Shown here piece by piece: positions 8,254 through 27,935 of a stretch of DNA of 44,080 bases. Source of the DNA: a virus. Position numbers and translations under genes: made by a program. The notes beneath the pieces are model-generated. The model searched no databases. It saw only the letters and a list, made by a program, of their open reading frames with translations, and was not told where the DNA came from. Positions within the stretch are counted from its first letter, which is position 1. Each line of letters opens with the position of its first letter. The DNA is taken from positions 1 through 44,080 of IMG/VR virus record IMGVR_UViG_3300031787_000240; one strand, given 5' to 3'.

Positions 8254-9432
8254 TTACTTCAGACCAAGGTATGCAGAGTCAACTCCATTAGCAGTATCAA
8301 TAGTATATCCAGAACCTGCTACTGCTCTACCTGCCGTTCCTCCTAATGTACCTGAAGCACCTGCCAATCCATTTGTGCGGTTTCCGTTAACACCAGTATT
8401 TCCAGTATCACCATTTTCACCATTTTGTCCCCAAGTTCCACCATCTCCACCATCTCCACCTTTTCCACCAGCTCCTGCATTAGTTCCACCAGCAGAACCA
8501 CCTACACCAGTTCCACCAAATGTTCTGGACTGTAGGTAACCTTGACCCAATCCGCCATCTGCGCCATCACCGCCAGCACCACCGTCTGTATTAACAGTAT
8601 AAGATACTGTTCTATCATAGAAACAGCAGAAACATTCTCCAGGGGTTCCTAATGCTCCACCACAGCAGTTATCTCCATTACCTTGTCTGCCGCTACAATA
8701 CTGTCCACCGGGGCAACCACAATTACCAGGACCACCTCTACTATATCCAGTTCCTACTCGTTCTGTATAACTGACAGTATATTGACCTCCACCACCTGTT
8801 CCACCATCTCCACCACCTCCGCCGCCACCGCCGCCGCCGTAGACTTGTGCAGAGGCACCAGAAGTCCTTACAGTAACTGTTCCGGTACTATTTGTGTTGA
8901 TATAGAGAGCATCACCACCATCTCCACCATTTATCGTTTCTGTTCCTGCAGATCCTCCATCACCAAGTATTACTCCAGTGATAAGAAGTAATACATTATA
9001 AACGGCAGTAGCATTTAGACTTGCTGCTGGTGTTGATGTAGTTGTTGACCCACTGGTTCCAGATAAATAAACTCTTTTTTCAATATTATATTGTAAGTTT
9101 GAATTCCAGAGTGAGGATGCTGCAATATTTAAGTTTAAATCTGTGTCAGATCCTTGTGTTAAATCATAATATTTTATAGAATTTCTAAACTGGGATAATT
9201 TTAAGTTACTTGATGTTGATATTCCACCACTCAAGGGTCCAGAAGTTCTATTTTCAGTACAATCTGGAACTATTGGTTCTGCTGTATTAACATTCGTATT
9301 TCTTCTAAGTTCAGATGCTTTTATGTTTCCTGATGATGTCCTCTTAAAGTTAGTTCTTAGGGAACTAAAAGATATAGATCCAGAAGCATAAAAAGGACCT
9401 GTTTCACTTGTTGTCGTTCTTGTTAAAGACAT
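8254..9432 (-). CDS. Glycine-rich tail-fibre tip adhesin with eight-Cys insert (392 aa)
   Basis: The N-terminal ~110 residues (SISFSSLRTNF, SSGNIKASELRRNTN, IVPDCTENR) resemble a conserved attachment domain of cyanophage structural proteins. A beta-strand region follows, then a C-terminal half of Gly-rich stretches (GGGGGGGGGGDGG, GTNAGAGGKGGDGGDGG) like the polyglycine-II sandwich of gp38-type adhesins. Between two Gly blocks lies an insert with eight Cys (about 8619-8730), alternating single and paired Cys. The gene overlaps the 549-aa fibre gene by one base, forming a shaft-tip pair. Expected at the tip of a long fibre, binding the host surface. The PGII fold is inferred from composition. 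Confidence 0.75.
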   Translation of the reverse strand: MSLTRTTTSETGPFYASGSISFSSLRTNFKRTSSGNIKASELRRNTNVNTAEPIVPDCTENRTSGPLSGGISTSSNLKLSQFRNSIKYYDLTQGSDTDLNLNIAASSLWNSNLQYNIEKRVYLSGTSGSTTTSTPAASLNATAVYNVLLLITGVILGDGGSAGTETINGGDGGDALYINTNSTGTVTVRTSGASAQVYGGGGGGGGGGDGGTGGGGQYTVSYTERVGTGYSRGGPGNCGCPGGQYCSGRQGNGDNCCGGALGTPGECFCCFYDRTVSYTVNTDGGAGGDGADGGLGQGYLQSRTFGGTGVGGSAGGTNAGAGGKGGDGGDGGTWGQNGENGDTGNTGVNGNRTNGLAGASGTLGGTAGRAVAGSGYTIDTANGVDSAYLGLK

Positions 9433-11081
9433 TAGAATAATCGAAGTGAAGTTGAACCAACACCTGGTACAGTAAATATAACTCTGCTTGGTGATGTTCC
9501 ATAGGTTATCTGAACAAACTCAGTTCCAACACCACTACTAATAAATCCACTAGTAGAACGAACTGAGAATGATGTAACATATCCACTAGCAACGTTCATT
9601 CCATCCGTCAATGTTAATGTATTTGCACGAATACCATTATTTACAGTTAAACCAGTATCTTGGAATCCAGAGTCAGTTCCAACACCAACATTAGTTCCTA
9701 ATCCAACAAAACTAGAACCATTAAAGTTTGCACTTCCAGTTACCTTCAGTGTACTGATAGTACTAACTCCAGAAGTGGTGTAGATGTTTGATGTTATAAT
9801 AGGATCTAGATTTAAAGTTCCACTAATAGAACCAGCAACAGTTAAGTTACCACCAAACCAGGCATTGCCCGTAACTGTTGATGTACCAACAACATGTAAC
9901 TTATGGGTTGGAATCGTCTGGTTAATACCAAGATTACCATCCCATGTTAGGGTCATTCTTTCGGAGTTAGTCTGACCATAAATCCACTTAAAGTTTCCAG
10001 TGCTACCAGCACCAGTACCATTGTGGAGTACAGTTCTAATATCTCCGGTATCATTGTTGATTAACTCTAGAGTCTTGCTTAAGTTACCAAATCTTAAAAT
10101 AGCATTGCTGTTCCCAATACCTATAGACTGACCAATACTAATTCTAGATTGACTATCAGTAGAGATAACCTCAAGTAATGTAGCATTTGACTTTCTAATT
10201 TGGAAGTCTGATGTTGGTTCTGCTGTTCCTACTCCAATTCTTCCAGAGTCTAGTGCTGCAAAAGAAGTTCCACCAGTTCCAACGTGCAATAGTTTGGTAA
10301 CAGTAGTGATACCAGATGGTGTTGCTGTAACTTCAATAGAATCTACTACAAGTTTAGATGCAGTTACTACTCCAACAGTAATATTTGGAGTTCCAATTAG
10401 TCCTCTTGCGGTTGTAGCAATACCAACGACATTTCCAGTTAAATCGCCAACAAATGTTGTTGCAGTAACGATACCACTATCAACAGTAACTGTACCTACT
10501 TTTAGTGATGTGAATGTTGAAACTCCAGTAGAATAAACATCACCAACTAAACCACCTCTGAAAGTCCCATAGAAGTCAGATGCTGTTATGATACCAGTTG
10601 CCTTAATACTTCCAGTTGAGTTAATACCAATACCATTTTGCGTATTTGGATTACCTCCAATTTGAAATACATATCTTGGATCTGTTGTTGCTACGCCAAC
10701 ATTTCCAGCAGCGTAAATGCTAGTAAATCCTAAACCAACATCAACATCAACCCACTGTGACGTTGGAAGGTTACTTAGAGTTGAACCATCACCATAAAAT
10801 GAAACTACACCAGATACTGCCGTAACAATACCGCTAGAACTGATTGATAGGTTACCAATAGAAGCGGAGGTTAAAGTTGTAACACCACTTACATTTAATG
10901 TTTTACTATGAAGTTGGTCTGCTGTTGCTAGTCCAACAACTTTGGCAGTTCCTCTTACGTCCAAAACTTCAGTTGGAATCGTGGTGCCGATTCCAACCAA
11001 ACCGTTTGAATTTACAACTAAGTTATCATAATCAACCTGGACGCCATTACGAAAATTAAACGACTTTCTATAATCTGCCAT
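9432..11081 (-). CDS. Tail-fibre-like structural protein with GIGT repeats (549 aa)
   Basis: Starts MADYRKSFNFRNGVQVDYDNL. The chain is beta-rich, low in charged residues and built on repeats around GIGTTxPTxxLDVxG (residues ~31-45, ~124-140, ~280-290, ~390-405), a pattern common in trimeric fibre stalks. The C-terminus (SRVIFTVPGVGSTSLRLF) probably interacts with the tip protein encoded next, whose start overlaps this stop by one base. A late promoter CATAAATA lies 18 bases before the ATG. Likely a trimeric fibre shaft; host-range role inferred. Confidence 0.75.
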   Translation of the reverse strand: MADYRKSFNFRNGVQVDYDNLVVNSNGLVGIGTTIPTEVLDVRGTAKVVGLATADQLHSKTLNVSGVTTLTSASIGNLSISSSGIVTAVSGVVSFYGDGSTLSNLPTSQWVDVDVGLGFTSIYAAGNVGVATTDPRYVFQIGGNPNTQNGIGINSTGSIKATGIITASDFYGTFRGGLVGDVYSTGVSTFTSLKVGTVTVDSGIVTATTFVGDLTGNVVGIATTARGLIGTPNITVGVVTASKLVVDSIEVTATPSGITTVTKLLHVGTGGTSFAALDSGRIGVGTAEPTSDFQIRKSNATLLEVISTDSQSRISIGQSIGIGNSNAILRFGNLSKTLELINNDTGDIRTVLHNGTGAGSTGNFKWIYGQTNSERMTLTWDGNLGINQTIPTHKLHVVGTSTVTGNAWFGGNLTVAGSISGTLNLDPIITSNIYTTSGVSTISTLKVTGSANFNGSSFVGLGTNVGVGTDSGFQDTGLTVNNGIRANTLTLTDGMNVASGYVTSFSVRSTSGFISSGVGTEFVQITYGTSPSRVIFTVPGVGSTSLRLF

Positions 11082-11098
11082 CTTAGACGGTTTTTAAG

Positions 11099-14000
11099 TT
11101 ATTTATGATTCTGGTCGTCAACCTTTCTAGAAAGTTCTTTAATAGCCTCAACCAGTAGAGGAACAATCTTATGGTAGTCAACCGCAAGGTAACCATTATC
11201 TCTAGTTGTGACTGCCTCTGGTAGAATCTTCTCAATTTCTTGAGCGATAAGACCAACATCATGACCAGTCTTGTTGGACTTTTCATTCCAATCAAATGTG
11301 TTACCACTGATTGATAGAACCTTTTCTAGTGGATTATCAATTCTAGTGATGTTATCCTTCAATCTTTCGTCAGAAGACCAGAAAGCAGTAATATCATCAG
11401 TTACGCTCAAGATACCAGTGATTGTTGTATTAGTTTGGATTGCAACAAGAGTGCTTCCACCATTTGCATTGAGTTTTAGATTTCCAGACTGAGTATCAAT
11501 AGTATTGTCATCAGTAACGGCAATTTTAATGTTACCAAAACTACCAGCGGAAGAAACTAGAGTAGATGAAGAATCAATAACTAGATTTCCACTTACGGTT
11601 AGGTTTCCAGTTACATTAGCATTTCCACCAACATTCAAGTTCTTCGCAATACCAACACCACCACTAACTGTGACTGCACCAGTACTGAAATCAGTTGACT
11701 GTGTAGTATCAGTTACTTTTAGTGGTGCAGAAATAGTAGTTGTATCATTAATTTTAACTTCTTTGTTGAACTTAACTGGACCATCAAACTGAGACAGAAC
11801 AGTACCAGAGTTTCCACCTTCAACTAGAAGTCTTTGCTTAACAATAACTTCATCAAATACAACACTCAAACTAGAAGGATCTTCACCAGTTATTGTTGGT
11901 ACTGGAATATCAAATACTTCTTCTTGACCAGTAGCAGAGTTAATCTTCTTATTACCAATGAAGAAGTCGCCAACGCTGTTCATACCAGTATAAACAACGA
12001 TACCGCAGTTCTTCTCTTGTGCTTGTGCGAGGTAGTCTTCCTTATCACTCAGACTCTTGACCTGAACTTGTGGAAGTGCAGTTGAATAGTTACCTGGACC
12101 ATAACCAAGATATTCAAATGTATGTCCAGAAGCACGTAAGTATGAAGGTCTACGGAACTCAATAGCCTTAGGTGTGATCTTCTTAATAAGAGCACCACCA
12201 GAATGGTTTTGCTTCAGAGTTCCTAAAGCACCACGAATAACACTGACTTCATTGTTACCAGAACCAGCAAGAGTGCTGGTTACAACTCTCATAATCTCAT
12301 CATCAACTTGGATATATGAACCAAGTTCAAATCTATTGGTAGTTGAAATACCAGAGTTTGTAGTTTTAATATGAAGTGTAGTCTGATTGGAGATATTAGA
12401 CTGAAGAATAGCAGTCTCGTTTCCGTAGAAGAAGAATCCTCTTGCTCCAAGATTCTCACCATCAACATCAGAGGTCTTATCATTGGAAGATAGACCATGC
12501 TTCAACAGATACTTAGGAGAAGTAAGTGATGCACTCGTCTTAGCACTAACTGTTGTGGTTGTGATACCAGTAACTAGATAGTCGCCTAAGTTTTGATCTG
12601 TAGAGTTCTTAACGGTGAGTCTATTACCAACCACAAAACCATGAGGTTCAGACATTGTAAAGGTGGTAATACCAGTTGCTGAAGTAAATGCTGAAGAAGA
12701 AACAGTTAGTTCAGGTGCAATGTTCAGTAGATATTGCCCTTGAACAATTCTTGGATCCTTATCAGTAATAGCAATAGCAACTTGATTTTTAGCAGGAACA
12801 CCAGTAATACGATAGTATCCACCAGCAGTTGTTCCAATACCTGTGATTTGAACGGTATTACCAATAACTGTTGAAATACCAGCAGTTGTTACAGTTAAAC
12901 CAGCGCCTACTCCACCACCAATTCTTCCAGTATCAAAGTCTAGTTCTTCGCCATTTGTATAACCAGAACCACCAACAGTAATATCTACAGAGGATACAGC
13001 ATTACCAGCAACTGTTACAGTGGCGGTAGCGCCATCCCAAGTTGATGTTCCATTATTAAAGAGTTTTACATTATAGTAAGTTCCATTGGTATATCCACTA
13101 CCACCAGTAAAGGAACTATAAGTTACAATTCCATTAAAACCATGCTCTCTAGCGAATGTTAAAGTTGCAACTCCAACAGTTGCACTTGGGAATGAAGTTG
13201 TAACTCCAGTGATAGGAAGACCAATACCAAGAGCTGGGAGTAAAATATCAACAGTTTCTCTTGTAAGACTCTTCTTAAGATCATCAGTTACAACATCGCC
13301 AATAGGAGATCTCTTAGCGTATGTTTTACTTGAGTTTGGATTATCACTGATATTATCTCTATCCAACTGTGGATATAGATCTTTAACATTTTGACTATAG
13401 GAATGTCCAGTGAATTCAGTTTCAACAGTATTACCAGCATTTAACACATACAAGTGATAAACACCATCTTGAACATCCTTAATATATGGAGAGATGACCT
13501 CGTTTCTATAAACATAGAAGTTCTCATTCCAATCATTTCTTTCTAATCTTGGAAGAGCAGTTGTTCTACTGCTTGTATCATTTGTAAATGAACCAGTAGA
13601 ATGAGTTATACCATAAACATCTGCTGTTGAGTGAGTAAATGTCTTATCATCAACTACAGAAGCAACAGTAAATACTCCATTATATCCCTTATTAACAGTT
13701 CCAGCAGTGTTTCCAGTGCTGGTTACATTTCTGATGATAATCTTCTCACCAACTCTTACATTATGTGGTAGTTCTGTAATAACAGTAACTGTAGAAGAAC
13801 TCGTTGAGCAGGTGCTGATGAATCTTGGGTTTCTGTTATAATCATAGTCAGATGTTGTAATTCCAGTAGCAGTAAAGTCAGCGTTAGATCTTGCTCCAGT
13901 AGTGCTGGACTCCTGAATAACAAATCCTTCTTCTGGATCCTTTGCATTATCAAACTCTTTTGGAACTACAACTCTAAACTTATAGAGTTTCTCATCAAGA

Positions 14001-16348: not shown

Positions 16349-16380
16349 CGGATTATATACGCCAATATATTTCTATGTTT

Positions 16381-16388
16381 TATTTATC
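16381..16388 (-). promoter_or_regulatory. Late promoter (GATAAATA) of the 1,749-aa fibre gene
   Basis: GATAAATA on the minus strand, 33 bases before the ATG of the S74 fibre, overlapping the last two bases of the 101-aa gene. It matches the NATAAATA pattern seen before other structural genes here. Confidence 0.6.
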
Positions 16389-16692
16389 AACCCATCAAAT
16401 CTTCCTCATCGTGATAATATTCTAGTTCATCAGGCATATCTTCAGGGTTTTCTAGTTCTATCGGGAACATACAAGGATGCACTTCCTCATCTATAAGGTA
16501 GAAAGAACTTCTGTATAAGTCGTCTGGTTCAAATGATCTTTCTTTATCTGCTAGTCTCTTAAGATCATCATCTTCCAAATGCCCATCAGGCATCTCATCA
16601 AATGTGAATGGGACTTGATTAATGAAATACATTTTCACTATCATGCTGCCTTCGTTATACCAGCAGTACGCAGTGTCTATTCTATAAGACAT
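16387..16692 (-). CDS. Acidic hypothetical protein (101 aa)
   Basis: The ATG at 16692 (MSYRIDTAYCWYNEGS) is chosen because GGGAG lies eight bases upstream; a GTG three codons earlier is unlikely. The protein starts with beta strands (MIVKMYFINQVPFTF) and continues very acidic (ELENPEDMPDELEYYHDEED). No family recognised. It is the last gene of the tRNA-bearing island, possibly transcribed with the tRNAs or from an AATAAATA motif at 16714-16721. Confidence 0.7.
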   Translation of the reverse strand: MSYRIDTAYCWYNEGSMIVKMYFINQVPFTFDEMPDGHLEDDDLKRLADKERSFEPDDLYRSSFYLIDEEVHPCMFPIELENPEDMPDELEYYHDEEDLMG

Positions 16693-16713
16693 AGGCTTCA
16701 CTCCCGTATCTTA

Positions 16714-16721
16714 TATTTATT
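16714..16721 (-). promoter_or_regulatory. Possible late promoter (AATAAATA) of the 101-aa gene
   Basis: AATAAATA on the minus strand, 22 bases before the ATG at 16692 and just after the 3' end of the tRNA. The surroundings are AT-rich, so a chance match is possible. Confidence 0.4.
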
Positions 16722-16725
16722 TTTA

Positions 16726-16799
16726 TACCCACAGTCGGATTCGAACCGACACTGGAGGAGTTTTAAGCTCCCTATCTCTGCCTGTTGGATTATGCGGGC
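16726..16799 (-). tRNA. tRNA-Leu(UAA)-like, short variable arm
   Basis: A 74-nt cloverleaf can be folded: acceptor GCCCGCA/TGTGGGT (two G-T pairs), a weak D stem ATCC/AGAT with GG in the loop, anticodon stem GGGAG/CTCCT with loop CTTAAAA, a five-base variable loop, T stem GTCGG/CCGAC with loop TTCGAAT, and discriminator A. The anticodon UAA would read UUA. Bacterial tRNA-Leu normally has a long variable arm (class II), absent here, so this is either an unusual leucine tRNA or one with another identity. CCA is not encoded. Confidence 0.8.
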
Positions 16800-16804
16800 G
16801 TAGG

Positions 16805-16878
16805 TGCAGGTTGCGAGGATCGAACTCGCCTTCGCAGAATTATGAGTTCTGAGCATTCTACCAGATTGCTAAACCTGC
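16805..16878 (-). tRNA. tRNA with CAU anticodon (Met or Ile2)
   Basis: A 74-nt cloverleaf: perfect acceptor GCAGGTT/AACCTGC, D stem GCA/TGC, perfect anticodon stem CAGAA/TTCTG with loop CTCATAA, perfect T stem GCGAG/CTCGC with loop TTCGATC, discriminator A followed by CC but not a full CCA. The CAU anticodon can be elongator Met or, after lysidine modification, Ile for AUA codons; the sequence alone does not decide. Confidence 0.88.
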
Positions 16879-16889
16879 TTTATGTAATT

Positions 16890-16971
16890 GGGAAGAACAT
16901 TGCCCTTCCCATACGACGCTACGGAAGATACCCGTAGTAGAAGTTGGCGTCTTTTTAGGCTATCTGCCTAA
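16890..16971 (-). ncRNA. Hairpin-rich element between tRNA genes
   Basis: A stretch of about 80 nt without an ORF folds on the minus strand into three units in order: TTAGGC-AGATA-GCCTAA; a compound stem closed by GACGC/GCGTC and enclosing CTACGG/CCGTAG; and GGGAAG/CTTCCC with a nine-base loop. It lacks the TTCGAxT T-loop and is not a fourth tRNA. It lies between the class II tRNA and the CAU tRNA and would be part of the same precursor. It could be a stable RNA, a processing signal, or the remains of a tRNA; function unknown. Confidence 0.5.
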
Positions 16972-16981
16972 CGACTACCAA

Positions 16982-17069: not shown

Positions 17070-17081
17070 TAGATGATGAAC

Positions 17082-17255: not shown

Positions 17256-17257
17256 TA

Positions 17258-17506: not shown

Positions 17507-17517
17507 GGGGTCTAGGC

Positions 17518-19011: not shown

Positions 19012-19037
19012 TATTAATAGACATTTTAAACATTATA

Positions 19038-19544
19038 TCAAGTATTTGATTGATTGTCAATTAAATCTAATACCCAAGATCTTTCTCCTTCAGAACCTTC
19101 AACTTGTTTCCAATCTGAAATAGATTCATCCCATTCATATTGATGAGTAGTCATTGGTTTTGGAAATGGTGGTCTCCATTTTTTTCTTTCTGGATCATAC
19201 CACCATAAAGGATGTGGTTGAGGTAAAATAAATTCATCAAATTCTTCATTATATAAAGAACCATCTAAAACAACTCGATTATATTCTTCATCATAATGAT
19301 ATCCTGGTGGAATAAAAACTTGATGAACTTCATCATAGAAGTCACCTATCCCAGCATACTTATATCTAAAATTTGAATTATAAGAAGTTTGAACCCACTT
19401 TGTATCTTGTCCTAATAAGTTTTTATTGAATTGAATTCCAATCTCTTCTGACTCATTTCCATTTTCATCCAAAATATCAGAGTTATTGACTACTGTTACT
19501 TGAAGTACTATATTATTTTCATCTAGTTCTGCGAAATGTGCCAT
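19038..19544 (-). CDS. Conserved cyanophage protein, MAHFAELDENN family (168 aa)
   Basis: The N-terminus MAHFAELDENNIVLQVTVVN with IGIQFNKNLLGQDTKWVQTS and RYKYAGIGDFYDEVHQVFIPP is, from memory, a pattern found repeatedly in marine cyanophages next to tail-fibre genes. The protein is rich in Trp/Tyr/Pro, with tandem motifs (HPLWWYDPERKKWRPPFPKP; YEWDESISDWKQV) that look like small carbohydrate-facing or capping repeats. It probably accompanies fibre tips or is a minor virion component. No enzyme motif. Confidence 0.75.
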   Translation of the reverse strand: MAHFAELDENNIVLQVTVVNNSDILDENGNESEEIGIQFNKNLLGQDTKWVQTSYNSNFRYKYAGIGDFYDEVHQVFIPPGYHYDEEYNRVVLDGSLYNEEFDEFILPQPHPLWWYDPERKKWRPPFPKPMTTHQYEWDESISDWKQVEGSEGERSWVLDLIDNQSNT

Positions 19545-19557
19545 AATTATTACTATA

Positions 19558-20409
19558 TTAAGTTACAGAGAATGTACCATTTGCGGTGAAATCGTGAATA
19601 GTATAAGGAGATCCACCAACAGTCGCTGTTGTTACAGTTCCTCCTGTTGCTCTTTGTGTAGATCCAGCATAGCGAACGATGACTCTTCCTGATCCACCAG
19701 AGAAAGTACCTGCAGGGCCCAAGTAATTTCCGATAGCATTTCTAGCACCACCCCCTGTATTAGAAGCAGGTGATTGAGTCGTGGTTCCATCACCATTATT
19801 TCCGACACTACTCCATCCGGCACCACCCCCTCCAAAAGCAACTGTTAGTGAAGTCCCTCCTCTAAAAGTTGCTAAATCATAACCAGGTCCTCCAGCACCA
19901 CCGACAGGATATGGTCCTGGACTACCAGCACCACCTTTTCCTCCACCACCTCCTGCTCCCCATTGCGCGTTACTAGTGGATGATCCACCAGAATTTCCTT
20001 GACCAGAAGTTCCGGATCCGCCGGCGCCACCACTGCTACCACCACTTCCAGATCCACCAGGTCGGCCTGTCCAGGCTACACCAGTATCACTTGCTGCTCC
20101 ATATCCACCACCAACAGCATTAGAAGCACCAGTAAATGAAGTTGGAGATCCATCGGCAGAACCACTTCCACCTCCACCAATTGTGACTGTAGAACTGCTT
20201 CCAGGATTTAATGTTGCCGAGTAAATATATAATCCCCCAGCACCACCCCCGCCGCCTCCATAGTAATTTGGCCAATAAACATCGTCATCTCTAGCAATAG
20301 GATTAATTGCTAGAAGAGATGATGCTCCACCACCACCACCCATCATAAGAACTTCAACACTCAATGGTGATGAAGATGATCCCATAAAAAATGATTGAAT
20401 AATAGACAT
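19558..20409 (-). CDS. Glycine-rich tail-fibre tip protein, no cysteine (283 aa)
   Basis: Starts MSIIQSFFMGSSSSPLSVEV. Gly makes up a very large fraction, with GGGGGA and GGGxxGG runs (residues ~24-29, ~50-57, ~150-175) separated by short strands, as in polyglycine-II or collagen-like adhesins. The C-terminus (SPYTIHDFTANGTFSVT) is a beta end seen in Gly-rich phage tip proteins. Unlike the two other Gly-rich tips, it contains no Cys. The gene lies one base after the collagen shaft gene 20411-21358, forming a shaft-tip pair. Role: receptor binding, inferred. Confidence 0.72.
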   Translation of the reverse strand: MSIIQSFFMGSSSSPLSVEVLMMGGGGGASSLLAINPIARDDDVYWPNYYGGGGGGAGGLYIYSATLNPGSSSTVTIGGGGSGSADGSPTSFTGASNAVGGGYGAASDTGVAWTGRPGGSGSGGSSGGAGGSGTSGQGNSGGSSTSNAQWGAGGGGGKGGAGSPGPYPVGGAGGPGYDLATFRGGTSLTVAFGGGGAGWSSVGNNGDGTTTQSPASNTGGGARNAIGNYLGPAGTFSGGSGRVIVRYAGSTQRATGGTVTTATVGGSPYTIHDFTANGTFSVT

Positions 20410-20410
20410 A

Positions 20411-21358
20411 TTATGTTAATCCTGCTCCAAATATTACAAATGTATTAGACCCTACACACAAAATTGTACATACTCCATATTGTGCTAATGTTCTGTTTCC
20501 TGTATTTGCCGTTCCTGCTGAACGTAAAGTAGTAGATGCTCCTTGAGTAATTGTTTGATTACTACCAGAATTATTATATATAGACACCGCATCTCCAACA
20601 TTAAACACTGAGTTTGGAACAGTAACTCCACCAGTAGTTATTGATATATGCTTTCCAACATCACCAGATACCAAAGTGTATCCTGTTGTTTGGGAATTTT
20701 GAGGAATTGTTGATGGTCCAGCAACACCTTGTGCACCCTGTGCGCCAGTAGCACCTGTGGAACCTTGAGCACCTTGAGCACCAGTAGCACCTGTGGAACC
20801 TTGAGCACCTGTAGATCCTTGTGCTCCTTGAGCACCAGTAGCACCTGTGGAACCTTGAGCACCTGTAGATCCTTGTGCTCCTTGAGCACCAGTAGCACCT
20901 GTGGAACCTTGAGCACCTTGAGCACCTGTAGAACCTGTTGCACCCTGTGCACCTGTTGCTCCTGTACTTCCTTGTGCTCCAGTAGAACCTGTTGCACCCT
21001 GTGCTCCAGTTGCTCCAGTAGAACCTTGAGCACCTGTTGAACCTATACTACCTTGAGTTCCTTGAGCACCAGTAGCACCTTGAGCACCTGTAGATCCTTG
21101 AGCACCAGATCCAGTGGCACCTTGAGCACCTGTAGATCCTTGAGCACCAGCGGTTCCTTGAGCACCAGCGGTTCCTTGAGCACCAGATCCAGTGGCACCT
21201 TGAGCACCTTGAGCACCAGTAGTACCTGTGGAACCTTGAACACCTTGTGCTCCAGGGTCTGGTATTCGTTGCCAGGCAGTCCCATTCCATTGCCACCTAC
21301 GCCCATTGGCGACATAATAATCGTTTAAACTAGGGCTGGATGGAAAATCTAGCGCCAT
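20411..21358 (-). CDS. Collagen-like tail-fibre shaft protein (315 aa)
   Basis: Residues 1-33 ([20 protein letters not shown] ... [11 protein letters not shown]) form an N-terminal Trp-rich attachment module. Residues ~33-218 are about 60 uninterrupted Gly-x-y triplets, mainly GAQ, GST and GAT, a collagen-like triple helix without proline. The last ~95 residues ([20 protein letters not shown] ... FVIFGAGLT) are a beta-rich trimerisation cap shared with the proteins at 23454-24353 and 26070-27935. A late promoter GAATAAATA lies 20 bases upstream. The following gene encodes a glycine-rich tip. Confidence 0.85.
20714..21258 (-). repeat. Tandem 9-bp-based repeats encoding GAQ/GST/GAT triplets
   Basis: Near-identical 9-18 bp units of the type GGTGCTCAAGGTTCCACA on the minus strand run for about 540 bases and encode the collagen-like shaft. 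The same units occur at 23770-24250 and 26386-27164, so slippage or recombination within and between the three genes is likely. Confidence 0.85.
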
Positions 21359-21377
21359 TTATTACAAACTTTTTGAT

Positions 21378-21386
21378 TATTTATTC
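21378..21386 (-). promoter_or_regulatory. Late promoter (GAATAAATA) of the 315-aa collagen gene
   Basis: GAATAAATA on the minus strand, 20 bases before the ATG at 21358, in the short gap after the 687-aa gene. Matches the NATAAATA late pattern of cyanophages. Confidence 0.6.
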
Positions 21387-21390
21387 TAGA

Positions 21391-23454
21391 TTATAAGTAC
21401 CGAATAATTTGAGTAGCAGAAGCATCTGATATTGAAAGTGATGATGTGCTTGATGATCCAAGTGTTCCAAAGGATAGACTTGGTGTTGAAGATGTAATAG
21501 TTGGAGTAGAATCAGTTGTTGTATAAGATGCTAACGTAAATCCACCATACGTTCCAGTAAAAGAACCATCTATTGGAAGTTTTGCTACCATATGATCCCA
21601 ATTTCCAGCAGTAGACTGATTCATACCAACAAAGTAAATACTATTTCTAACAACATAAAGATGGTGAGAATTACTTTGTACAAAATTAGTTGAATGGGAT
21701 ATAGATCTCTTCCAAGAAATGTTTCCATTGGATTGGTTATATTTAAAAAGAAAAGACCTGAGAACAACTGATGGACTTGTTTGTAGAAGAGATCCTCCAA
21801 CGTAAAGATTGCCATCATCATCCAAAGTCATTGCTGTAGCATAGATTCTACTTTCAGAGCTATGCTTAATCTGCCATTGAATTACGCCAGAAGAATTTGT
21901 TTTCAATACATATCCATCATTATTACTATCAATAGCACCCACAAATATATTTCCACTACTATCAACACATAATCCTCTAATTCCACTATTGGAAAGTATT
22001 GTAGAAAACTGTACCGTCTTTTGAAGAGTTCCCGATGAATTGAAATGAGAAACATTATTACCAAATCCAACATAAACATCATCAGTTGTTCTATCTACAA
22101 AAACAACCATTCCAGAGTAACCAGTACCTGATGTTTTAGTCCACTGTAAAGTTCCTGAAGAATTATATTTTACAAGATACATTTGTTCATTACCGGCAGT
22201 TGCTGGAGAATTGACGTATCCAGTCCAATAAACATTTCCACTTGAATCACATCTTAAATCATAAGCTACATTATTAGCATATCCTGTTGTAATTTGTCTT
22301 TGCCATTGAATTGCTCCAGTCGAAGAGCTTAATTGCATTGTCCAGAACGGTTTGTATAATTCCGATGACTGAGCACCAAAGATGTAAATATTACCACTAG
22401 AATCAATATCTATTCCAAGACCATATTCATAATTACCAGCACCAATATATTTTTGCCAAACAATCGCACCATATTCATTTATTTTATAGATAAACCAATC
22501 ATCATGTCCACCACTTCCCCTATTTGTATCACCAAAACCATAGTAATGTCCATCATAATATACACCAGCAGTACCTCTCTCAAGACTACTATAACCAACA
22601 CTACTTATCCAATACGAAGAATCTGGATTAACTCCAGGTCCAGCATCATAAACTTCTGTAATTTGAGTAGAATTTAAAAGTGTTGCCCACGCTGCCGATT
22701 TATAGTATTTTCCACTAAAGGCACCATCACCATAAACATCAGCACTTACACCATATCCAGTTCTAGATCCTACTGGAGTATTGACAGATTCAGTCTCAGT
22801 ATAATTATCTTCAAAGGTTCCATTCACATATAAACTAATTACACCAGAAGAATTGAATGTTATAGTTATATTATACAGAACTGAAGTTGAAAAAGTATAG
22901 TCAAATGTATGTTCTTCTTGCCATCCTGCTGTATAATCATAACTAGTGTATACAAGTTTTCCAGAAACAAAATAAAATCCAACATATCTTTGACCAGAAC
23001 TTGGAATTGTATCTACTCCCATTAAAGCTTGTTTTGCAATATTATTGTGTTCATAAGTAACCCAAAATGTAAATGTCATACTACTATTTGGCCAATTCAT
23101 TTGGTTTTTAGCGCCAATTGCTGGACCAACAAAACCAGCAAGAACTCCAGAAGTATCAGGATTCCAATTATTATTCACAGACATATCCAAATATTCTCCA
23201 TTAGAATTACTGGATAAAGTTGGATAATAATTATATGGAGTTTCAGTTTGACCAAACCTAGAACCATTACGATTACTAGATCCTGCATTTACAGCAAAGG
23301 GATGTCCAGGTGCAAGACTTTGTAAAATATTTCCATTAGGTCTGTTATATATCCCATACACACTACTAATATTATAATAATAAATACAATTCTCCAACGA
23401 CGGAAGATCATTCAGTTGAGTATTAAATATTGTATATTGTTGTGGATGACCCAT
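21391..23454 (-). CDS. Lectin-domain plus beta-propeller tail-fibre tip protein (687 aa)
   Basis: Residues ~1-260 resemble a LamG/concanavalin-type jelly roll (MTFTFWVTYEHNN, LYNITITFNSSGVISLYVNG, SGKYYKSAAWATLLNSTQIT), as in carbohydrate-binding domains. Residues ~290-630 carry at least six SBBP-type beta-propeller blades with the repeated DSSGNIY(I/V)xG pattern (GIDIDSSGNIYIFG, RCDSSGNVYWTG, CVDSSGNIFVG, LDDDGNLYVGG). The end is a Ser/Thr-rich tail. Its ATG overlaps the stop of the collagen shaft gene upstream (TAATG), so it probably forms the tip of that fibre and binds host glycans. Domain assignment is by pattern; no catalytic residues seen. Confidence 0.75.
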   Translation of the reverse strand: MGHPQQYTIFNTQLNDLPSLENCIYYYNISSVYGIYNRPNGNILQSLAPGHPFAVNAGSSNRNGSRFGQTETPYNYYPTLSSNSNGEYLDMSVNNNWNPDTSGVLAGFVGPAIGAKNQMNWPNSSMTFTFWVTYEHNNIAKQALMGVDTIPSSGQRYVGFYFVSGKLVYTSYDYTAGWQEEHTFDYTFSTSVLYNITITFNSSGVISLYVNGTFEDNYTETESVNTPVGSRTGYGVSADVYGDGAFSGKYYKSAAWATLLNSTQITEVYDAGPGVNPDSSYWISSVGYSSLERGTAGVYYDGHYYGFGDTNRGSGGHDDWFIYKINEYGAIVWQKYIGAGNYEYGLGIDIDSSGNIYIFGAQSSELYKPFWTMQLSSSTGAIQWQRQITTGYANNVAYDLRCDSSGNVYWTGYVNSPATAGNEQMYLVKYNSSGTLQWTKTSGTGYSGMVVFVDRTTDDVYVGFGNNVSHFNSSGTLQKTVQFSTILSNSGIRGLCVDSSGNIFVGAIDSNNDGYVLKTNSSGVIQWQIKHSSESRIYATAMTLDDDGNLYVGGSLLQTSPSVVLRSFLFKYNQSNGNISWKRSISHSTNFVQSNSHHLYVVRNSIYFVGMNQSTAGNWDHMVAKLPIDGSFTGTYGGFTLASYTTTDSTPTITSSTPSLSFGTLGSSSTSSLSISDASATQIIRYL

Positions 23455-24353
23455 TATACAAGACCAGCTCCACTAATGAAAAAAGTATCGGAAGATACGC
23501 AAATTACCGTAGCAATTCCTCTTTGAATTAAAGATTTATTTCCTGTAGTAGAAGTTCCTGCAGTGTACATAGTAACACCAGATCCTTGAACTATTGATCT
23601 GGTTGCATTTGTGTTATTTACTATGGTTACAGTATCTCCAGCAGAAAATACTCCAGATGGAACGGTGATACTAATTGCTGCAGTAATTGAAATAATTTTA
23701 CTATTATCTGATGCTACTAATGTATAATTTGAAGACTTTTCATTAAGAGTTAGAGTTCCAGGTGAACCCTGTACACCTTGAGCACCTTGAGCACCAGTAG
23801 CACCTACAGCACCCTGAGCACCAGTAGCACCTTGAGCACCTATAGTACCTTGAGATCCTGATGCACCTTGAGCACCTATAGTACCTTGAGCACCTGCCGT
23901 ACCTTGAGCACCTTGAGCACCAGTAGCACCTACAGCACCCTGAGCACCAGTAGCACCTTGAGCACCTATAGTACCTTGAGATCCTGATGCACCTGCAGCA
24001 CCCTGAGCACCAGTAGCACCTACAGCACCCTGAGCACCAGTAGCACCAGTAGCACCTTGAGCACCAGCGGTTCCTTGTGCTCCTACTGAACCTTGTGCGC
24101 CAGTAGCACCTGTGGAACCTTGAGCACCAGTAGCACCTGTGGAACCTTGAGCACCTTGAGCCCCTACAGCACCTTGAGCACCAGCGGTCCCTTGAGCACC
24201 TTGAGCACCAGTAGCACCTGTGGAACCTTGAGCACCTTGTGCTCCAGGATCACCAAGTCTTACCCAAGCAGTTCCATTCCAACGCCAAGTAGCACCATTA
24301 GCGTTATACTCATCATTTAAAGTAGGACTAGCAGGAAAATTTAATGCAGCCAT
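23454..24353 (-). CDS. Collagen-like tail-fibre shaft protein (299 aa)
   Basis: Same three-part plan as the 315-aa fibre: N-terminal module ([20 protein letters not shown] ... [11 protein letters not shown], residues 1-33), Gly-x-y collagen repeat (residues ~33-202, mainly GAQ/GAV/GTI/GAT), and a C-terminal beta cap of ~95 residues ([20 protein letters not shown] ... [10 protein letters not shown]). Late promoter GAATAAATA 18 bases upstream. The stop overlaps the start of the 687-aa lectin/propeller gene, suggesting coordinated production of shaft and tip. Paralogue of the two other collagen fibres. Confidence 0.85.
23770..24250 (-). repeat. Tandem repeats encoding collagen triplets
   Basis: About 480 bases of 9-18 bp units coding GAQ/GAV/GTI/GST triplets, closely related in DNA to the arrays at 20714-21258 and 26386-27164. 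They form a potential hotspot for unequal recombination. Confidence 0.85.
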
Positions 24354-24370
24354 TATCTACGGTTTTTAGA

Positions 24371-24379
24371 TATTTATTC
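24371..24379 (-). promoter_or_regulatory. Late promoter (GAATAAATA) of the 299-aa collagen gene
   Basis: GAATAAATA on the minus strand, 18 bases before the ATG at 24353. The leader contains TAAAAACCGT, shared with the 549-aa fibre gene. The rest of the 117-base gap up to 24477 is AT-rich and shows no further gene. Confidence 0.6.
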
Positions 24380-24477
24380 TTAGCATGTAATTAGAAATGC
24401 AACATTAAATCTGTAACTTTTTTGCCAACCAATCACTTTAGTTAATATTAATTAAGATTTTTATCATCAACAATAAA

Positions 24478-24633
24478 CTACCATTTCCCAACAGGACACG
24501 AAGAATTGCTAAGTCTTACCTTAATCGGCATAAAACACCCACACTTCTTACACTGTCTAGTTGGTTTGAAGAAATGTTCGCACTGTAAGCAAAGTTTCAT
24601 TCTATCAACAGCTAACTGAATTTTTTCATTCAT
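24478..24633 (-). CDS. Six-cysteine zinc-ribbon-like small protein (51 aa)
   Basis: A 51-codon frame starting MNEKIQLAVDRMKLCLQC. Six Cys at residues 15, 18, 28, 31, 33 and 46 give C-x2-C-x9-C-x2-C-x-C-x12-C followed by PVGKW, identical in spacing to the central domain of the 121-aa protein at 7861-8226. It overlaps the 184-aa gene upstream by eight bases. Probably binds zinc (inference). It lies two genes downstream of a glycine-rich tip with eight Cys, mirroring the arrangement at 7.9-9.4 kb. Confidence 0.8.
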   Translation of the reverse strand: MNEKIQLAVDRMKLCLQCEHFFKPTRQCKKCGCFMPIKVRLSNSSCPVGKW

Positions 24634-25180
24634 TTTTCAATTGCTCCTCTGCAAGTTCTACGATTAAATCATCATTTTCAAAAATTAAACTTTCTATTGC
24701 ATCTTCAACAGTAATACTATTTGTTACGACATATTCCTCAATTTTCTTATCCAACTCTTCTTTCAATCTATAATCATCATTTTTCTTGATAAAGTAATCT
24801 GCCATTACATATGATATGATAATTTGGTCTTTGTGAAAATTTGGTAGTGGTAAACCGCCATATAATTCAGTTGTAATTGGTGTTAAATCTACATCTGGAA
24901 CATTATCACTAGTTGATGCTTGAGTTTGAATAGATTTTTCAAAAATTGTATTTGGCAATACAGAATTTTCCTTTCTAGTAGATTGCCTTTCTAAATCTAC
25001 AGAAACATTCGAATTAATCAAAGTTTGTGGGTCTGGTATAAATTCTGGATCATAATAAGATACTGCGTCATCAACATCTTCTAGAGAAAAATTTTCTCCA
25101 ATAGGCACGATTGCCCACGAATTATCTTCAAACTCAACCCTGATTTGACCAGGAAGAACTTCTTTGATTATATACTTCAT
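24626..25180 (-). CDS. Hypothetical tail-fibre-region protein (184 aa)
   Basis: The N-terminal ~35 residues form strands (YIIKEVLPGQIRVEFEDNSW AIVPIG), the middle is a polar, probably disordered linker (SVDLERQSTRKENS), and the C-terminal half is helical and acidic (KEELDKKIEEYVVTNSITVE). Late promoter GATAAATA 23 bases upstream, so it is expressed with virion genes. It could be a fibre-assembly chaperone or adaptor, judged by position between fibre genes; no family recognised. Confidence 0.7.
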   Translation of the reverse strand: MKYIIKEVLPGQIRVEFEDNSWAIVPIGENFSLEDVDDAVSYYDPEFIPDPQTLINSNVSVDLERQSTRKENSVLPNTIFEKSIQTQASTSDNVPDVDLTPITTELYGGLPLPNFHKDQIIISYVMADYFIKKNDDYRLKEELDKKIEEYVVTNSITVEDAIESLIFENDDLIVELAEEQLKNE

Positions 25181-25202
25181 TATGTATCAATAAATTTACA
25201 AG

Positions 25203-25210
25203 TATTTATC
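25203..25210 (-). promoter_or_regulatory. Late promoter (GATAAATA) of the 184-aa gene
   Basis: GATAAATA on the minus strand, 23 bases before the ATG at 25180, overlapping the last codons of the glycine-rich tip gene. Confidence 0.6.
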
Positions 25211-26066
25211 CTATTCTACCATTTCTTGTGCCATTTGCAACCCAAGTAACATTTCCATTGTTAACGATATAAAATCCTGCTAAACCACCAGCAGTTCCTG
25301 CGGCACCAGACCCATTGTTGCCGTTTGCACCGGTGTTACCAGTATTACCACTGTTTCCGTAAGAACCACCAGTTCCACCTGTTCCACCAGCACCAGCATT
25401 TGTGCCACCTGCACTTCCAGAAGAACCAGATGCAGCAGCACCATCATAACCTTCACCTCTTCCACCATTACCACCAGAACCACCTGAGGTATAGTAAGTA
25501 TTTGTATAGCAATATTTACATACTTTTTCCCATAATGTATAGTTTCTACCATCACCACAAGCTCTTATTCTTCTACATTCATCTTGACAGTTACAAGGGT
25601 GTGGTGGATTTAATTGATAACAAGGCATACTGTTTCCGCTACAAACAGTATTTGCCCAATATGATTCTCCAGATGATTGATAATATCCTCCACCACCAGT
25701 GCCACCAACTCCTCCTCCTCCACCACCAGAGGAAATAGTGCCACGATTATCAATGAAAATATTAGAGGCACCAGCATTAATAGCATTTCCACCAGTTCCA
25801 CTATTTGCGGCACCACCAGCACCAAGAATAGAACCCTCATTTACCAAAAGTATTCTTCCACCAAATCCTGACGGAATGTTTAAAGCATAATTTCCTGTGC
25901 TCGTGGCTCCAATAGTAACTCCACTAGCAATGACAACTCTTTTATTAATACCTGCTGAATACTTACTTGATCCAAAAAGAGTTTGTAAATTTAAATTCTC
26001 TTGATTGGTTGTAATGTGATGAATTAATTCTGAAGATAGTAAATGAGGAACAGATGCAATAGTCAT
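25206..26066 (-). CDS. Glycine-rich tail-fibre tip adhesin with eight-Cys insert (286 aa)
   Basis: The N-terminal ~95 residues are beta-rich (HLLSSELIHHITTNQENLNL ... KRVVIASGVTIGATST). Then come Gly blocks (GGGGGGVGGTGGGG; GGSGGNGGRGEG; GGTNAGAGGTGGTGG) of polyglycine-II type, interrupted by an insert of about 45 residues with eight Cys (around 25505-25645). The C-terminus (GFYIVNNGNVTWVANG) is a short beta cap. It begins three bases after the 621-aa collagen shaft, forming a shaft-tip pair. Resembles the 392-aa tip at 8254-9432 in architecture and in the shared GSAGGTNAGAGG segment. Confidence 0.75.
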   Translation of the reverse strand: MTIASVPHLLSSELIHHITTNQENLNLQTLFGSSKYSAGINKRVVIASGVTIGATSTGNYALNIPSGFGGRILLVNEGSILGAGGAANSGTGGNAINAGASNIFIDNRGTISSGGGGGGVGGTGGGGYYQSSGESYWANTVCSGNSMPCYQLNPPHPCNCQDECRRIRACGDGRNYTLWEKVCKYCYTNTYYTSGGSGGNGGRGEGYDGAAASGSSGSAGGTNAGAGGTGGTGGSYGNSGNTGNTGANGNNGSGAAGTAGGLAGFYIVNNGNVTWVANGTRNGRIG

Positions 26067-26069
26067 AAA

Positions 26070-27935
26070 TTACAACAATCCGCTACCAGAAATTACAAAT
26101 TCGTTACTTGCTATACATAAAACCGTTGCCAAACCTCTTTGCTGTAAAGTTCTATTGCCAGTATCAGAAGTTCCAGGAAGTCTTAATGTTGTAGAAGTAC
26201 CCTGTGTGATTGTTTGTGAAGAAGCGGAGTTATTGTAAATTAATACGGTATTTCCTGCAGTAAAAGTATCAGAAGGAACAGTAACTCCTCCTGCAGTTAT
26301 ACTTATAATAGTTCCAGCGTCTCCTGCAACTAAAACATATGATGAAGATTTTGTGGTTACAGTTAGAGGTCTTGTTCCATCGGATCCTTGAGCACCTGCC
26401 GTACCTTGAGCACCTTGAGCACCAGTAGCACCCTGACGACCTTGAGCACCCTGTGCTCCTACTGAACCTTGAGCACCTATAGTACCTTGAGCACCTATAG
26501 TACCTTGAGATCCTGCGGTTCCTTGAGCACCTTGAGCACCAGTAGTACCTTGAGATCCTGATGCACCTGCGGTTCCTTGAGCACCTTGAGCACCAGTAGC
26601 ACCTTGAGCACCTATAGTACCTTGAGATCCTGATGTACCTGCCGTACCTTGAGCACCTTGAGCACCTGCGGTTCCTTGAGCACCTTGAGCACCTGTAGAT
26701 CCTTGTGCTCCTACTGAACCTTGAGCACCAGTAGCACCTTGAGCACCTTGAGCACCAACAGCACCCTGAACACCTTGATAACCTTGTGCACCTTGAGCAC
26801 CTACAGTACCTTGAGATCCTGATGTACCTGCCGTACCTTGAGCACCTGTAGATCCTTGTGCTCCTACTGAACCTTGAGCACCAGTAGCACCTTGAGCACC
26901 AACAGCACCCTGACGACCTTGAGCACCTTGAGCACCTTGAGCACCTATAGTACCTTGAGATCCTGATGTACCTGCCGTACCTTGAGCACCTTGAGCACCT
27001 GTAGATCCTTGTGCTCCTACTGAACCTTGAGCACCAGTAGCACCTTGAGCACCTGTAGATCCTTGTGCTCCTACTGCACCTTGAGCACCTTGATAACCTT
27101 GTGCTCCTTGTGGTCCAGCAGTACCTTGAGCACCTGTAGATCCTTGTGGTCCTTCAATAGCATTGCTTGCCGTAACCCATTGAGATGTGTCTGCATCTTC
27201 ATAGTAAACGTAAAGGTTACCAGACTCACTATTCCACCAAAGATCGCCTGGTTGTGGTGATGATGGAGATGATGTTGATATTTGTACTAGTGTATCAGAA
27301 CTATTTGCAGATACCCATTGAGAACTAGAACCATCATTATAATATACTTTTAAATCTCCAGTATCACTTTCCCACCATAAGTCTCCAATATTTGGAGAAC
27401 TTGGAGCAGTATCGCTAATAGTTACAGTCTCACTACCACCAGATGTTTCAACCCACTGTTCACTATTTCCATCCTGATAGTAAAGATATAGTTCACCTAC
27501 ATCACTATCCCACCAAAGATCTCCCTGACTTACTCCACTTGGTGGTTCTGCACTAACAGTAACTCTGGGAGATATTGTAATTGTAGAAATAGATCCACTT
27601 GCAATGGCAGTTACACCAGTTCCTACAAAGTTTAGTTTTGATATACTATTGGCAGTTCCAACAAGAAATCCTTCGTCAAAGATACTTATTCCACCAGGTT
27701 GTAAACCAGGCTGTTCCTGCCAGTATCTATCATAAGTTGTACCGTTATTAACGGTAATCAACTGATAATACTTATCAGCAAGTGGTATTAATTTTTCTCC
27801 AACATAACCTAAGTTGGGTTCGACCTCACCTGGATGAACATATAAATGACGGTCTGAAGATAACGCTTCAGTTCCTGCTATCTTTACTCTACCACTTATA
27901 TATCGCTGTGTCGGCTTTCTTGTATTATCTGCCAT
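26070..27935 (-). CDS. Long collagen-like tail-fibre protein with Trp-rich repeats (621 aa)
   Basis: Residues 1-130 form an attachment/beta region (RYISGRVKIAGTEALSSDRH LYVHPGEVEPNLG). Residues ~133-255 carry three Trp-rich repeats of the form GDLWWxSxxGxLYVYYxDxxSxQWV. Residues ~258-517 are a long collagen-like Gly-x-y shaft (GAQ, GTA, GTI, GSV). The last ~100 residues are the same beta cap (SSYVLVAGDAGTIISITAGG ... EFVISGSGLL) as in the two shorter collagen fibres. The longest collagen fibre here, with a glycine-rich tip encoded directly downstream. Confidence 0.85.
   Translation of the reverse strand: MADNTRKPTQRYISGRVKIAGTEALSSDRHLYVHPGEVEPNLGYVGEKLIPLADKYYQLITVNNGTTYDRYWQEQPGLQPGGISIFDEGFLVGTANSISKLNFVGTGVTAIASGSISTITISPRVTVSAEPPSGVSQGDLWWDSDVGELYLYYQDGNSEQWVETSGGSETVTISDTAPSSPNIGDLWWESDTGDLKVYYNDGSSSQWVSANSSDTLVQISTSSPSSPQPGDLWWNSESGNLYVYYEDADTSQWVTASNAIEGPQGSTGAQGTAGPQGAQGYQGAQGAVGAQGSTGAQGATGAQGSVGAQGSTGAQGAQGTAGTSGSQGTIGAQGAQGAQGRQGAVGAQGATGAQGSVGAQGSTGAQGTAGTSGSQGTVGAQGAQGYQGVQGAVGAQGAQGATGAQGSVGAQGSTGAQGAQGTAGAQGAQGTAGTSGSQGTIGAQGATGAQGAQGTAGASGSQGTTGAQGAQGTAGSQGTIGAQGTIGAQGSVGAQGAQGRQGATGAQGAQGTAGAQGSDGTRPLTVTTKSSSYVLVAGDAGTIISITAGGVTVPSDTFTAGNTVLIYNNSASSQTITQGTSTTLRLPGTSDTGNRTLQQRGLATVLCIASNEFVISGSGLL
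26386..27164 (-). repeat. Tandem repeats encoding the long collagen shaft
   Basis: About 780 bases of 9-18 bp related units; larger blocks also recur within the array (for example [10 protein letters not shown] and GTAGTSGSQGT units return several times), showing past expansion by duplication. Confidence 0.85.

What the first reader, a model, noticed from the sequence alone, without database searches (positions are those of the whole stretch)
8254..27935. Four shaft-tip gene pairs: one phage carrying several interchangeable host-binding fibres
Four times a fibre-shaft gene is followed without a gap (1-base overlap to 3-base gap) by a gene for a different putative tip: 549-aa GIGT fibre plus 392-aa Gly-rich protein (9432/8254); 315-aa collagen plus 283-aa Gly-rich (20411/19558); 299-aa collagen plus 687-aa lectin/propeller (23454/21391); 621-aa collagen plus 286-aa Gly-rich (26070/25206). 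The three collagen shafts share the same C-terminal ~95-residue cap, which would be the natural socket for the tip, while the tips differ. This resembles gp37-gp38 of T-even phages, multiplied. It suggests a modular adhesin system in which tips can be exchanged on a common socket.
Basis: partly seen in the sequence, partly recalled or inferred. Interest (0 to 1): 0.85.

Follow-up and report, generated by a model that had tools for sequence, protein, structure and literature searches.

The report
Plug-and-socket joint for phage tips
This virus, apparently one that infects cyanobacteria, carries three tail fibres that end in the same small socket, each followed by a gene for a different putative host-gripping tip, and many other viruses seem to use the same socket with a short matching plug to exchange tips of quite different kinds.

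Summary
In detail: four shaft-tip gene pairs, three with a shared ~99-residue C-terminal cap. Tight spacing alone is weak evidence (8 of 24 neighbouring gaps are as small); relatives make the case. In IMG/VR all 108 assessable unique caps end at a stop codon followed by an ORF, 101 within -4..+4 nt. The following tips fall into 48 BLAST clusters (many glycine-rich; others lectin, propeller, fibronectin or gp38-like) yet tend to share an N-terminal "dock" near MSIxQxLLxG; a profile trained on glycine-rich tips recognises 11 of 15 other clusters. In reverse, 45 of 47 genes picked by one form of the dock follow a cap. The gp38-like body follows a cap when its N-terminus is short (12 of 12), not when it has another N-terminal domain (0 of 16). 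Caps up to 96% identical carry bodies without BLAST similarity. Tip 4 models as gp38 (Z 20), the cap as the gp9/XD1 fold. Pair 1 has no cap. Collagen is incidental (11 of 108 shafts). Contact and presence in virions are inferred. Best reading: an exchangeable cap-dock joint, like gp37-gp38 with a different socket.

The parts
26070..27935 (-). Shaft 4: collagen-like fibre with three QGDLWW-type repeats before the collagen
   Evidence: (PF01391 E 3.4e-40)
26073..26369 (-). Cap (socket) of shaft 4, last 99 residues
   Evidence: AF2 model pLDDT 98
25206..26066 (-). Tip 4: gp38-like polyglycine adhesin; first ~10 residues (26037-26066) at the dock position, low confidence in the model
   Evidence: Z 20.0 to S16 gp38 6f45_D; phrog_2056 host specificity E 3.8e-5. 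Its own dock score is below the 95% background line; relatives L025/L048 carry MSIIQ at this place
23454..24353 (-). Shaft 3: collagen-like fibre
23457..23756 (-). Cap of shaft 3
21391..23454 (-). Tip 3: propeller-bearing tip ([10 protein letters not shown], at best a divergent dock)
   Evidence: dock score below background line
20411..21358 (-). Shaft 2: collagen-like fibre, start 79% identical in DNA to that of shaft 3 over 163 nt
20414..20710 (-). Cap of shaft 2
19558..20409 (-). Tip 2: Gly_rich_2 tip with dock MSIIQSFFMG
   Evidence: PF21722 E 6.7e-13
9432..11081 (-). Shaft 1: GIGT fibre (phrog_3269), no cap
8254..9432 (-). Tip 1: glycine-rich tip with its own ~60-residue N-terminal domain, shared with P-SSM2 and S-SRM01 proteins

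Best explanation
[quoted passage not shown] Cap plus dock act as a standard joint: the body behind the dock is exchanged by recombination between phages, giving tips of unrelated folds on the same socket. Shown: cap, dock, their mutual association in both search directions, exchange of bodies behind similar caps, the gp38 fold of tip 4 and the gp9/XD1-like fold of the cap (both as models). Inferred: physical binding, trimeric cap, stoichiometry, presence in virions, host binding, and that this phage displays all three fibres. Pair 1 is probably also a fibre with a gp38-like tip, but with another joint.
For: Cap first: 183 hits reduce to 111 unique (cap plus 300 nt), all ending 0-3 residues before the end of the open frame; 108 of 108 assessable are followed by an ORF, gap -1 in 73, -4 in 15, +1 in 10. 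Same-locus control, all loci: cap to tip within +-4 nt in 131 of 139, tip to next gene in 56 of 139. Dock: among 48 body clusters, leave-one-out scores of residues 2-11 exceed 99% of 713 background ORFs in 36 of 48; since many clusters are glycine-rich and may be related, a profile trained on the 33 clusters with at least 20% Gly was tested on the 15 others: 11 of 15 exceed 99% of 709 background ORFs. Dock first: 45 of 47 genes with an upstream gene follow a cap, 42 of them at -4, -1 or +1; the other two have a cap gene 350-600 nt upstream. Same body, other joint: gp38-like body with short N-terminus behind a cap 12 of 12, with other N-terminal domains 0 of 16. Swaps: 7 of 32 locus pairs with caps at least 90% identical have different body clusters; DNA identity drops to chance at or shortly after the tip start. 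Isolates: in S-B28, S-CBS2 and Sphaerotilus phage vB_SnaP-R1 (the last with a T7 fibre anchor) 3 of 3 have an overlapping tip gene. Tip bodies match binding folds: Gly_rich_2 28, Laminin_G_3 8, SBBP 3, fn3 2, GP38 2 of 65 scanned.
Against: No direct evidence of contact; complexes could not be modelled. Cap and dock do not co-vary across different bodies: Mantel rho 0.146, p 0.052 with 45 representatives and rho -0.022, p 0.57 with 70. Tips 3 and 4 of this window score below the dock threshold. In L084, L265 and L280 small genes separate cap and tip. Most cap-bearing records have one cap (22 of 32); three occur only in copies of this phage. The loci are the best 80 of at least 501 and the best 80 of 246 relatives, so distant caps are under-sampled.
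Confidence: 0.76

Rival explanations
1. The downstream genes are fibre-specific assembly chaperones (like Pam3 gp25 or the Alteromonas phage chaperones) that help the cap trimerise, some staying on the fibre.
For: Fibre-chaperone pairs are known, and a fibre with its cognate chaperone is shared between distant phages (PMC9608196, first part of five read; PMC10579305, abstract). T4 gp38 itself is a chaperone that is released (passage in PMC12892980).
Against: 65 scanned tips match mostly sugar- and protein-binding folds; none of the 25 families shown (of 26) is a chaperone. Tip 4 models as the gp38 adhesins of S16 and PP01 (Z 20.0 and 19.8). Many different folds as chaperones of one cap is implausible (inference).
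Confidence: 0.08
2. Adjacency only reflects dense packing of structural genes; the tips are virion proteins bound elsewhere.
For: Gaps in the window are generally small (8 of 24 within -4..+4).
Against: 131 of 139 against 56 of 139 in the same-locus control; a dock pattern alone retrieves caps in 45 of 47; the gp38-like body lacks a cap before it when it has another N-terminus.
Confidence: 0.06
3. The conserved first residues of the tips serve translation (coupled start after the cap stop codon) or co-translational assembly, not docking.
For: Overlaps of -1 and -4 dominate, and L116 and L105 stay alike in DNA about 60 nt into the tip gene, so part of the conservation is linkage.
Against: Conservation is seen in amino acids (I3, Q5, L/M6, L/F7) among bodies in different clusters and in tips at +1 and +15 gaps such as L088, L078, L029. 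L121 and L153 keep similar docks although their DNA identity falls already at the stop codon.
Confidence: 0.1

Closest known systems
gp37-gp38 long tail fibre tip of S16, T2, PP01
   Same: Separate adhesin protein on the fibre end (gene order gp37-gp38 recalled); tip 4 has the gp38 polyglycine fold (Z 20.0, 189 residues, rmsd 3.3, 28% identity); T2 gp37 did not accept PP01 gp38 until its N-terminal 113 residues were those of T2 gp38 (passage of PMC12892980).
   Different: Socket models as a gp9/XD1-like cap; S16 gp37 did not appear among its matches (inconclusive). The common part of the tips is ~10 residues. Tips of many other folds use the same socket; three pairs in one phage.
XD domains of CBA120 TSP4, T4 gp10 and the gp9 middle domain
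   Same: Cap model matches TSP4 residues 79-183 (Z 9.3, 24% identity), gp9 64-166 (Z 8.6), gp10 (Z 8.1). XD2/XD3 are sites where other receptor-binding proteins attach (passages of PMC8825819).
   Different: The matched stretch is the XD1 domain, whose function that paper calls not yet fully understood (apparently a spacer); here it is the C-terminal end of the shaft. Non-phage proteins also match: CpaA complex 6o38 Z 9.7, StcE 4dny Z 7.5.
Fibre-chaperone modules of Alteromonas phages A5 and V22, and Pam3 gp24-gp25
   Same: A fibre and a second protein acting on its distal part; the A5/V22 module is shared across distant phages (abstracts).
   Different: There the second protein is a chaperone; here the second genes are diverse binding folds with a common N-terminal peptide.

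Membership tests
gp38 adhesin (S16/T2/PP01 type), tip 4 | Polyglycine-helix sandwich fold | tested here: met
   AF2 model Z 20.0 to 6f45_D and 19.8 to 9v85_A, next 8.0; profile E 3.2e-6 to 6f45_D (an unrelated 'Tet4 variant' also reaches 4.6e-4, so composition contributes)
gp38 adhesin (S16/T2/PP01 type), tip 4 | Variable segment between glycine-rich motifs | tested here: met
   Alignment A5, columns ~141-230
gp38 adhesin (S16/T2/PP01 type), tip 4 | Pfam PF05268 match | tested here: not met
   No Pfam family for tip 4 at E 0.01; 2 of 65 tips scanned match PF05268. So tip 4 is called gp38-like, not a Pfam member
gp38 adhesin (S16/T2/PP01 type), tip 4 | Caps a gp37-type fibre trimer in the virion | not testable with these tools
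   No complex prediction available; gp37 not among the listed matches of the cap, which excludes nothing
XD1/gp9 domain, cap | Fold | tested here: met
   Z 8.1-11.4 to gp9, gp10-type, tailspike and spike domains over 84-92 residues; a non-phage chain (6o38) lies in the same range (Z 9.7)
XD1/gp9 domain, cap | Trimer and partner binding | not testable with these tools
   Single chains only
XD1/gp9 domain, cap | Sequence family | tested here: inconclusive
   Only weak scattered Pfam matches (StcE_b-sandwich 1, Phage_depo_C 1 of 99); phrog_8780 minor tail protein 34 of 99
Tail fibre assembly chaperones | Match to a chaperone family | tested here: not met
   None among the 25 Pfam families shown (of 26) for 65 tips at E 0.001
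Collagen-like phage fibres | PF01391 | tested here: met
   Shafts 2, 3, 4
Gly_rich_2 proteins, tip 2 | PF21722 above curated cut-off | tested here: met
   49.6 bits against 24.3

The most novel reading that the evidence does not exclude
Cap plus dock is a standard joint used across tail types and hosts, on which phages exchange adhesins of unrelated folds by recombination close behind a ~10-residue plug; it is one of several such joint codes (a second: fibre ends GD[IV]WY[KQ][IV] with LHxKxAGxW docks, three distinct cases), so tip partners can be read from sequence alone.
Probability: 0.55. Interest if true: 0.87.

Novelty: new variant of a known kind. Interest (0 to 1): 0.74.

Why it matters
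Receptor-binding proteins are hard to find in environmental phages. A recognisable socket and plug would point to the adhesin gene in phages with no annotation, show how adhesins move between phages with different tails and hosts, and make the exchange of host-binding parts between unrelated phages a testable rule.

Tried and rejected
Tight gene spacing as evidence by itself: rejected, base rate too high in the window. Collagen as the essential part: rejected, 11 of 108 shafts. Cap-dock covariation: tested twice and not found (rho 0.146, p 0.052; rho -0.022, p 0.57, while the control residues gave rho 0.083, p 0.022). Pair 1 as the same system: rejected, no cap. PDB sequence searches with tips 1 and 4 alone and with the cap profile gave nothing useful. 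Bacterial genomes: of 47 pattern stretches in genome contigs only 2 encode a cap; in both, L376 (a metagenome-assembled genome) and L377, an ORF starts with a -1 overlap, in L376 with MSIYNVLAG; too few to say more. S16 gp37 did not appear among structure matches of the cap; this excludes nothing. Ten literature searches listed no title or abstract start describing this cap or dock; only the top rows are listed and the library is open-access only. The dock sequence itself was not searched in any family database. Dock statistics include dock-selected loci, so I rely. The 48 body clusters are BLAST clusters, not 48 proven folds: 33 of their representatives have at least 20% Gly and may be related. 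In one search one of the 108 following ORFs (L084) is not a tip; a glycine-rich tip follows one gene later. My ORF rule takes the first start near the stop, which favours small gaps; the same-locus control used the same rule. Some of the 45 dock-first tips are cut by contig ends (L217, L276).
Full report
WHAT IS THERE. The window is a whole 44,080-base IMG/VR virus record, of a cyanomyovirus-like phage by its baseplate and tail genes (phrog matches), with three tRNA genes; its nearest named DNA is in a marine virus single-cell record and in Synechococcus and Prochlorococcus phages. On the - strand lie the four shaft-tip pairs as described. Shafts 2, 3 and 4 contain collagen and end in a shared cap of about 99 residues, 49-58% identical. 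Tip 2 is a Gly_rich_2 protein, tip 3 has propeller repeats similar to CylK, tips 1 and 4 both match phrog_10745. Junctions are -1, +1, -1 and +3. Tight junctions alone prove little: 8 of 24 adjacent same-strand gaps in the window lie within -4..+4.

THE CAP PREDICTS A FOLLOWING TIP GENE. tblastn in 50,697 phage records found 7 with a cap, two of them second entries of S-B28 and S-CBS2. In S-B28, S-CBS2 and Sphaerotilus phage vB_SnaP-R1 the next gene overlaps the cap gene by 1-4 bases; it encodes a Laminin_G_3 protein in S-B28 and glycine-rich proteins in the other two, that of the Sphaerotilus phage gp38-like by eye. S-B28 and the Sphaerotilus phage are Autographiviridae by their records; that S-CBS2 is a siphovirus is recalled. 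Two IMG/VR scans kept the best 80 of at least 501 and the best 80 of 246 relatives; with the phage records these gave 183 profile hits, 111 unique, and each cap ended 0-3 residues before the end of its frame. Of 108 with at least 150 bases downstream, 108 were followed by an ORF, 101 within -4..+4. In one of them (L084) that ORF is another small gene and a glycine-rich tip comes after it. With all loci fetched later, 174 of 174 assessable caps are followed by an ORF, 163 within -4..+4 (which includes loci chosen by dock). In 139 loci the cap-tip gap is within +-4 in 131, the tip-next gene gap in 56.

THE TIPS TEND TO SHARE A DOCK. The 108 following proteins form 48 BLAST body clusters. Position 3 is Ile in 28 of 48 and position 5 Gln in 29 of 48; leave-one-out scores of residues 2-11 exceed 99% of 713 other ORFs in 36 of 48 and 95% in 39 of 48. 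The nine low scorers include tips 3 and 4 of this window, so the dock is a tendency, not a rule. Because many clusters are glycine-rich and may be distantly related, I trained a profile on the 33 clusters with at least 20% Gly and tested the 15 others: 11 of 15 exceed 99% of 709 background ORFs, the four failures being L011 (tip 3 of this phage), L061, L160 and L084. In reverse, a DNA pattern for M-x-I-Q-Q-M-[L/F]-[L/F] found 91 stretches. Of the 80 matches held, 31 were too short to be genes, 2 had no usable upstream gene, and of the remaining 47, 45 follow a gene ending in the cap (gap -4, -1 or +1 in 42; 21, 38 and 42 in three); the other two, L265 and L280, have a cap gene 350-600 bases upstream with small ORFs between. 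These 47 are 35 distinct tips, 33 of them directly after a cap, and 31 of the 35 are not in the cap-first set.

SAME BODY, DIFFERENT JOINT. Relatives of tip 4 (28 of 38 loci examined, the ten left out being further 100% identical copies) with a short N-terminus lie behind a cap in 12 of 12. Those with another N-terminal domain (mostly ISFNDINVELG-like, one LHIKDAGTW-like) lie behind a cap in 0 of 16; one of these, L201, starts too near the contig end to judge, and several are near copies of each other. Rhizobium phage RHEph27 has a similar body, a LHVKQAGAW start and a fibre without cap. A pattern search for that second dock found 6 stretches: four copies of one locus, and L383 (the L203 contig), follow fibres ending GDIWYQI and GDIWYKV; one other protein (L382) does not. 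With RHEph27 (GDVWYKI) this is three distinct cases.

EXCHANGE. Among pairs of loci with caps at least 90% identical, 7 of 32 have different body clusters. Three of the seven involve L116, which keeps a 41-residue BLAST match to its partners; the other four (L079/L063 at 95.9%, and L121 with L153, L069 and L151 at 92-94%) have none. L116 and L105 have 96.9% identical caps and nearly the same first ~20 tip residues, then different bodies; DNA identity falls from ~95% to chance about 60 bases after the stop. In three other pairs it falls at the stop codon or some 20-40 bases after it. Of the 108 tips I scanned 65 in Pfam: Gly_rich_2 in 28, Laminin_G_3 in 8, SBBP in 3, fn3 in 2, GP38 in 2, and SPRY, F5/8 type C and WD40-type propellers in single members. 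Shafts vary as well: 11 of 108 are collagen-like, and the Sphaerotilus shaft has a T7 fibre anchor (PF03906). Cap and dock do not co-vary over different bodies, which fits a common joint but gives no support from co-evolution.

STRUCTURE. The cap models at mean pLDDT 98. Its best matches are Pa223 capsid spike C-terminus Z 11.4 (92 residues, rmsd 2.4), KP1 baseplate Z 11.1, Solidus tailspike C-terminus Z 10.8, the non-phage chaperone-substrate complex 6o38 Z 9.7 (CpaA, per PMC8825819), CBA120 TSP4 79-183 Z 9.3, T4 gp9 Z 8.6, gp10 Z 8.1, StcE Z 7.5. In TSP4 this stretch is the XD1 domain, which its authors relate to gp9, CpaA and StcE and call not fully understood, while XD2 and XD3 bind other tailspikes (passages of PMC8825819). 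Tip 4 models at 86.9 with residues 1-10 at about 42; the variable segment around residues 141-180 is also low, about 50. It matches S16 gp38 at Z 20.0 and PP01 gp38 at Z 19.8; the next is 8.0. In PP01 and T2 the gp38 N-terminus must suit gp37 (passage of PMC12892980).

PAIR 1. Shaft 1 has no cap. Its tip shares a ~60-residue N-terminal domain with a 1,147-residue P-SSM2 protein that directly follows a similar shaft, and with an S-SRM01 protein annotated as gp37-gp38 adhesin tip complex (PF05268 by the authors' own search, passage of PMC8557907). Of 80 loci I examined 74 (six more copies left out), 56 distinct; 43 have an ORF directly upstream, and it is a GIGT-type shaft, by a rough motif test, in 25. 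In S-SRM01 a halogenase gene lies between. It is a fibre-tip pair of another, looser kind.

SEVERAL FIBRES IN ONE PHAGE. Of 39 records searched, 32 have a cap: six have three (the window and five near-identical contigs), four have two, 22 have one (records are fragments, and in one two-cap record, G010, the two hits have equal scores on opposite strands, which may be an assembly duplication). So three caps in one record is unusual. In the near-identical contigs that I checked, the tips present are 100% identical in DNA.

JUDGEMENT. Best reading: cap and dock form an exchangeable plug-and-socket joint at the distal end of fibres, functionally like gp37-gp38 with a different socket. Contact, trimer state and virion presence are inferred. 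Ten literature searches listed nothing that describes this cap or dock. For the cap, Pfam and NCBIfam gave only weak scattered matches and PHROGs gave phrog_8780, minor tail protein, in 34 of 99 and two others in one each. Papers seen: PMC9608196 first of five parts; PMC12892980, PMC8825819, PMC13243795, PMC8557907 passages; PMC10579305 and PMC10743442 abstract and outline; others in listings only.

Noticed in passing
window 23454-24353 and 26070-27935; L011, L013, L014, L015: In near-identical contigs of this phage the tips present are 100% identical in DNA, but collagen shafts 3 and 4 differ by insertions and deletions (open frames of 258, 300 and 342 codons for shaft 3): repeat-length variation or assembly artefact.
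   Followed up: partly
L166 10499-11956 and several IMG/VR loci (e.g. L323, L332, L339): A flavin-dependent halogenase gene (S-SRM01 annotation), or an ORF of similar ~490-residue length in other loci, lies directly before the tip-1-type gene.
   Followed up: no
L062, L131, L039: Cap proteins of only 123-125 residues, little more than the socket itself, with a following ORF: possible adaptor proteins.
   Followed up: no
window 19038-19544; L084 from 5278: A small MAHFAELDENN protein follows tip 2 here and sits between cap and tip in L084.
   Followed up: partly
L203, L378-L381, L383, L165: A possible second joint code: fibres ending GD[IV]WY[KQ][IV] followed by tips starting with LHxKxAGxW repeats.
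   Followed up: partly
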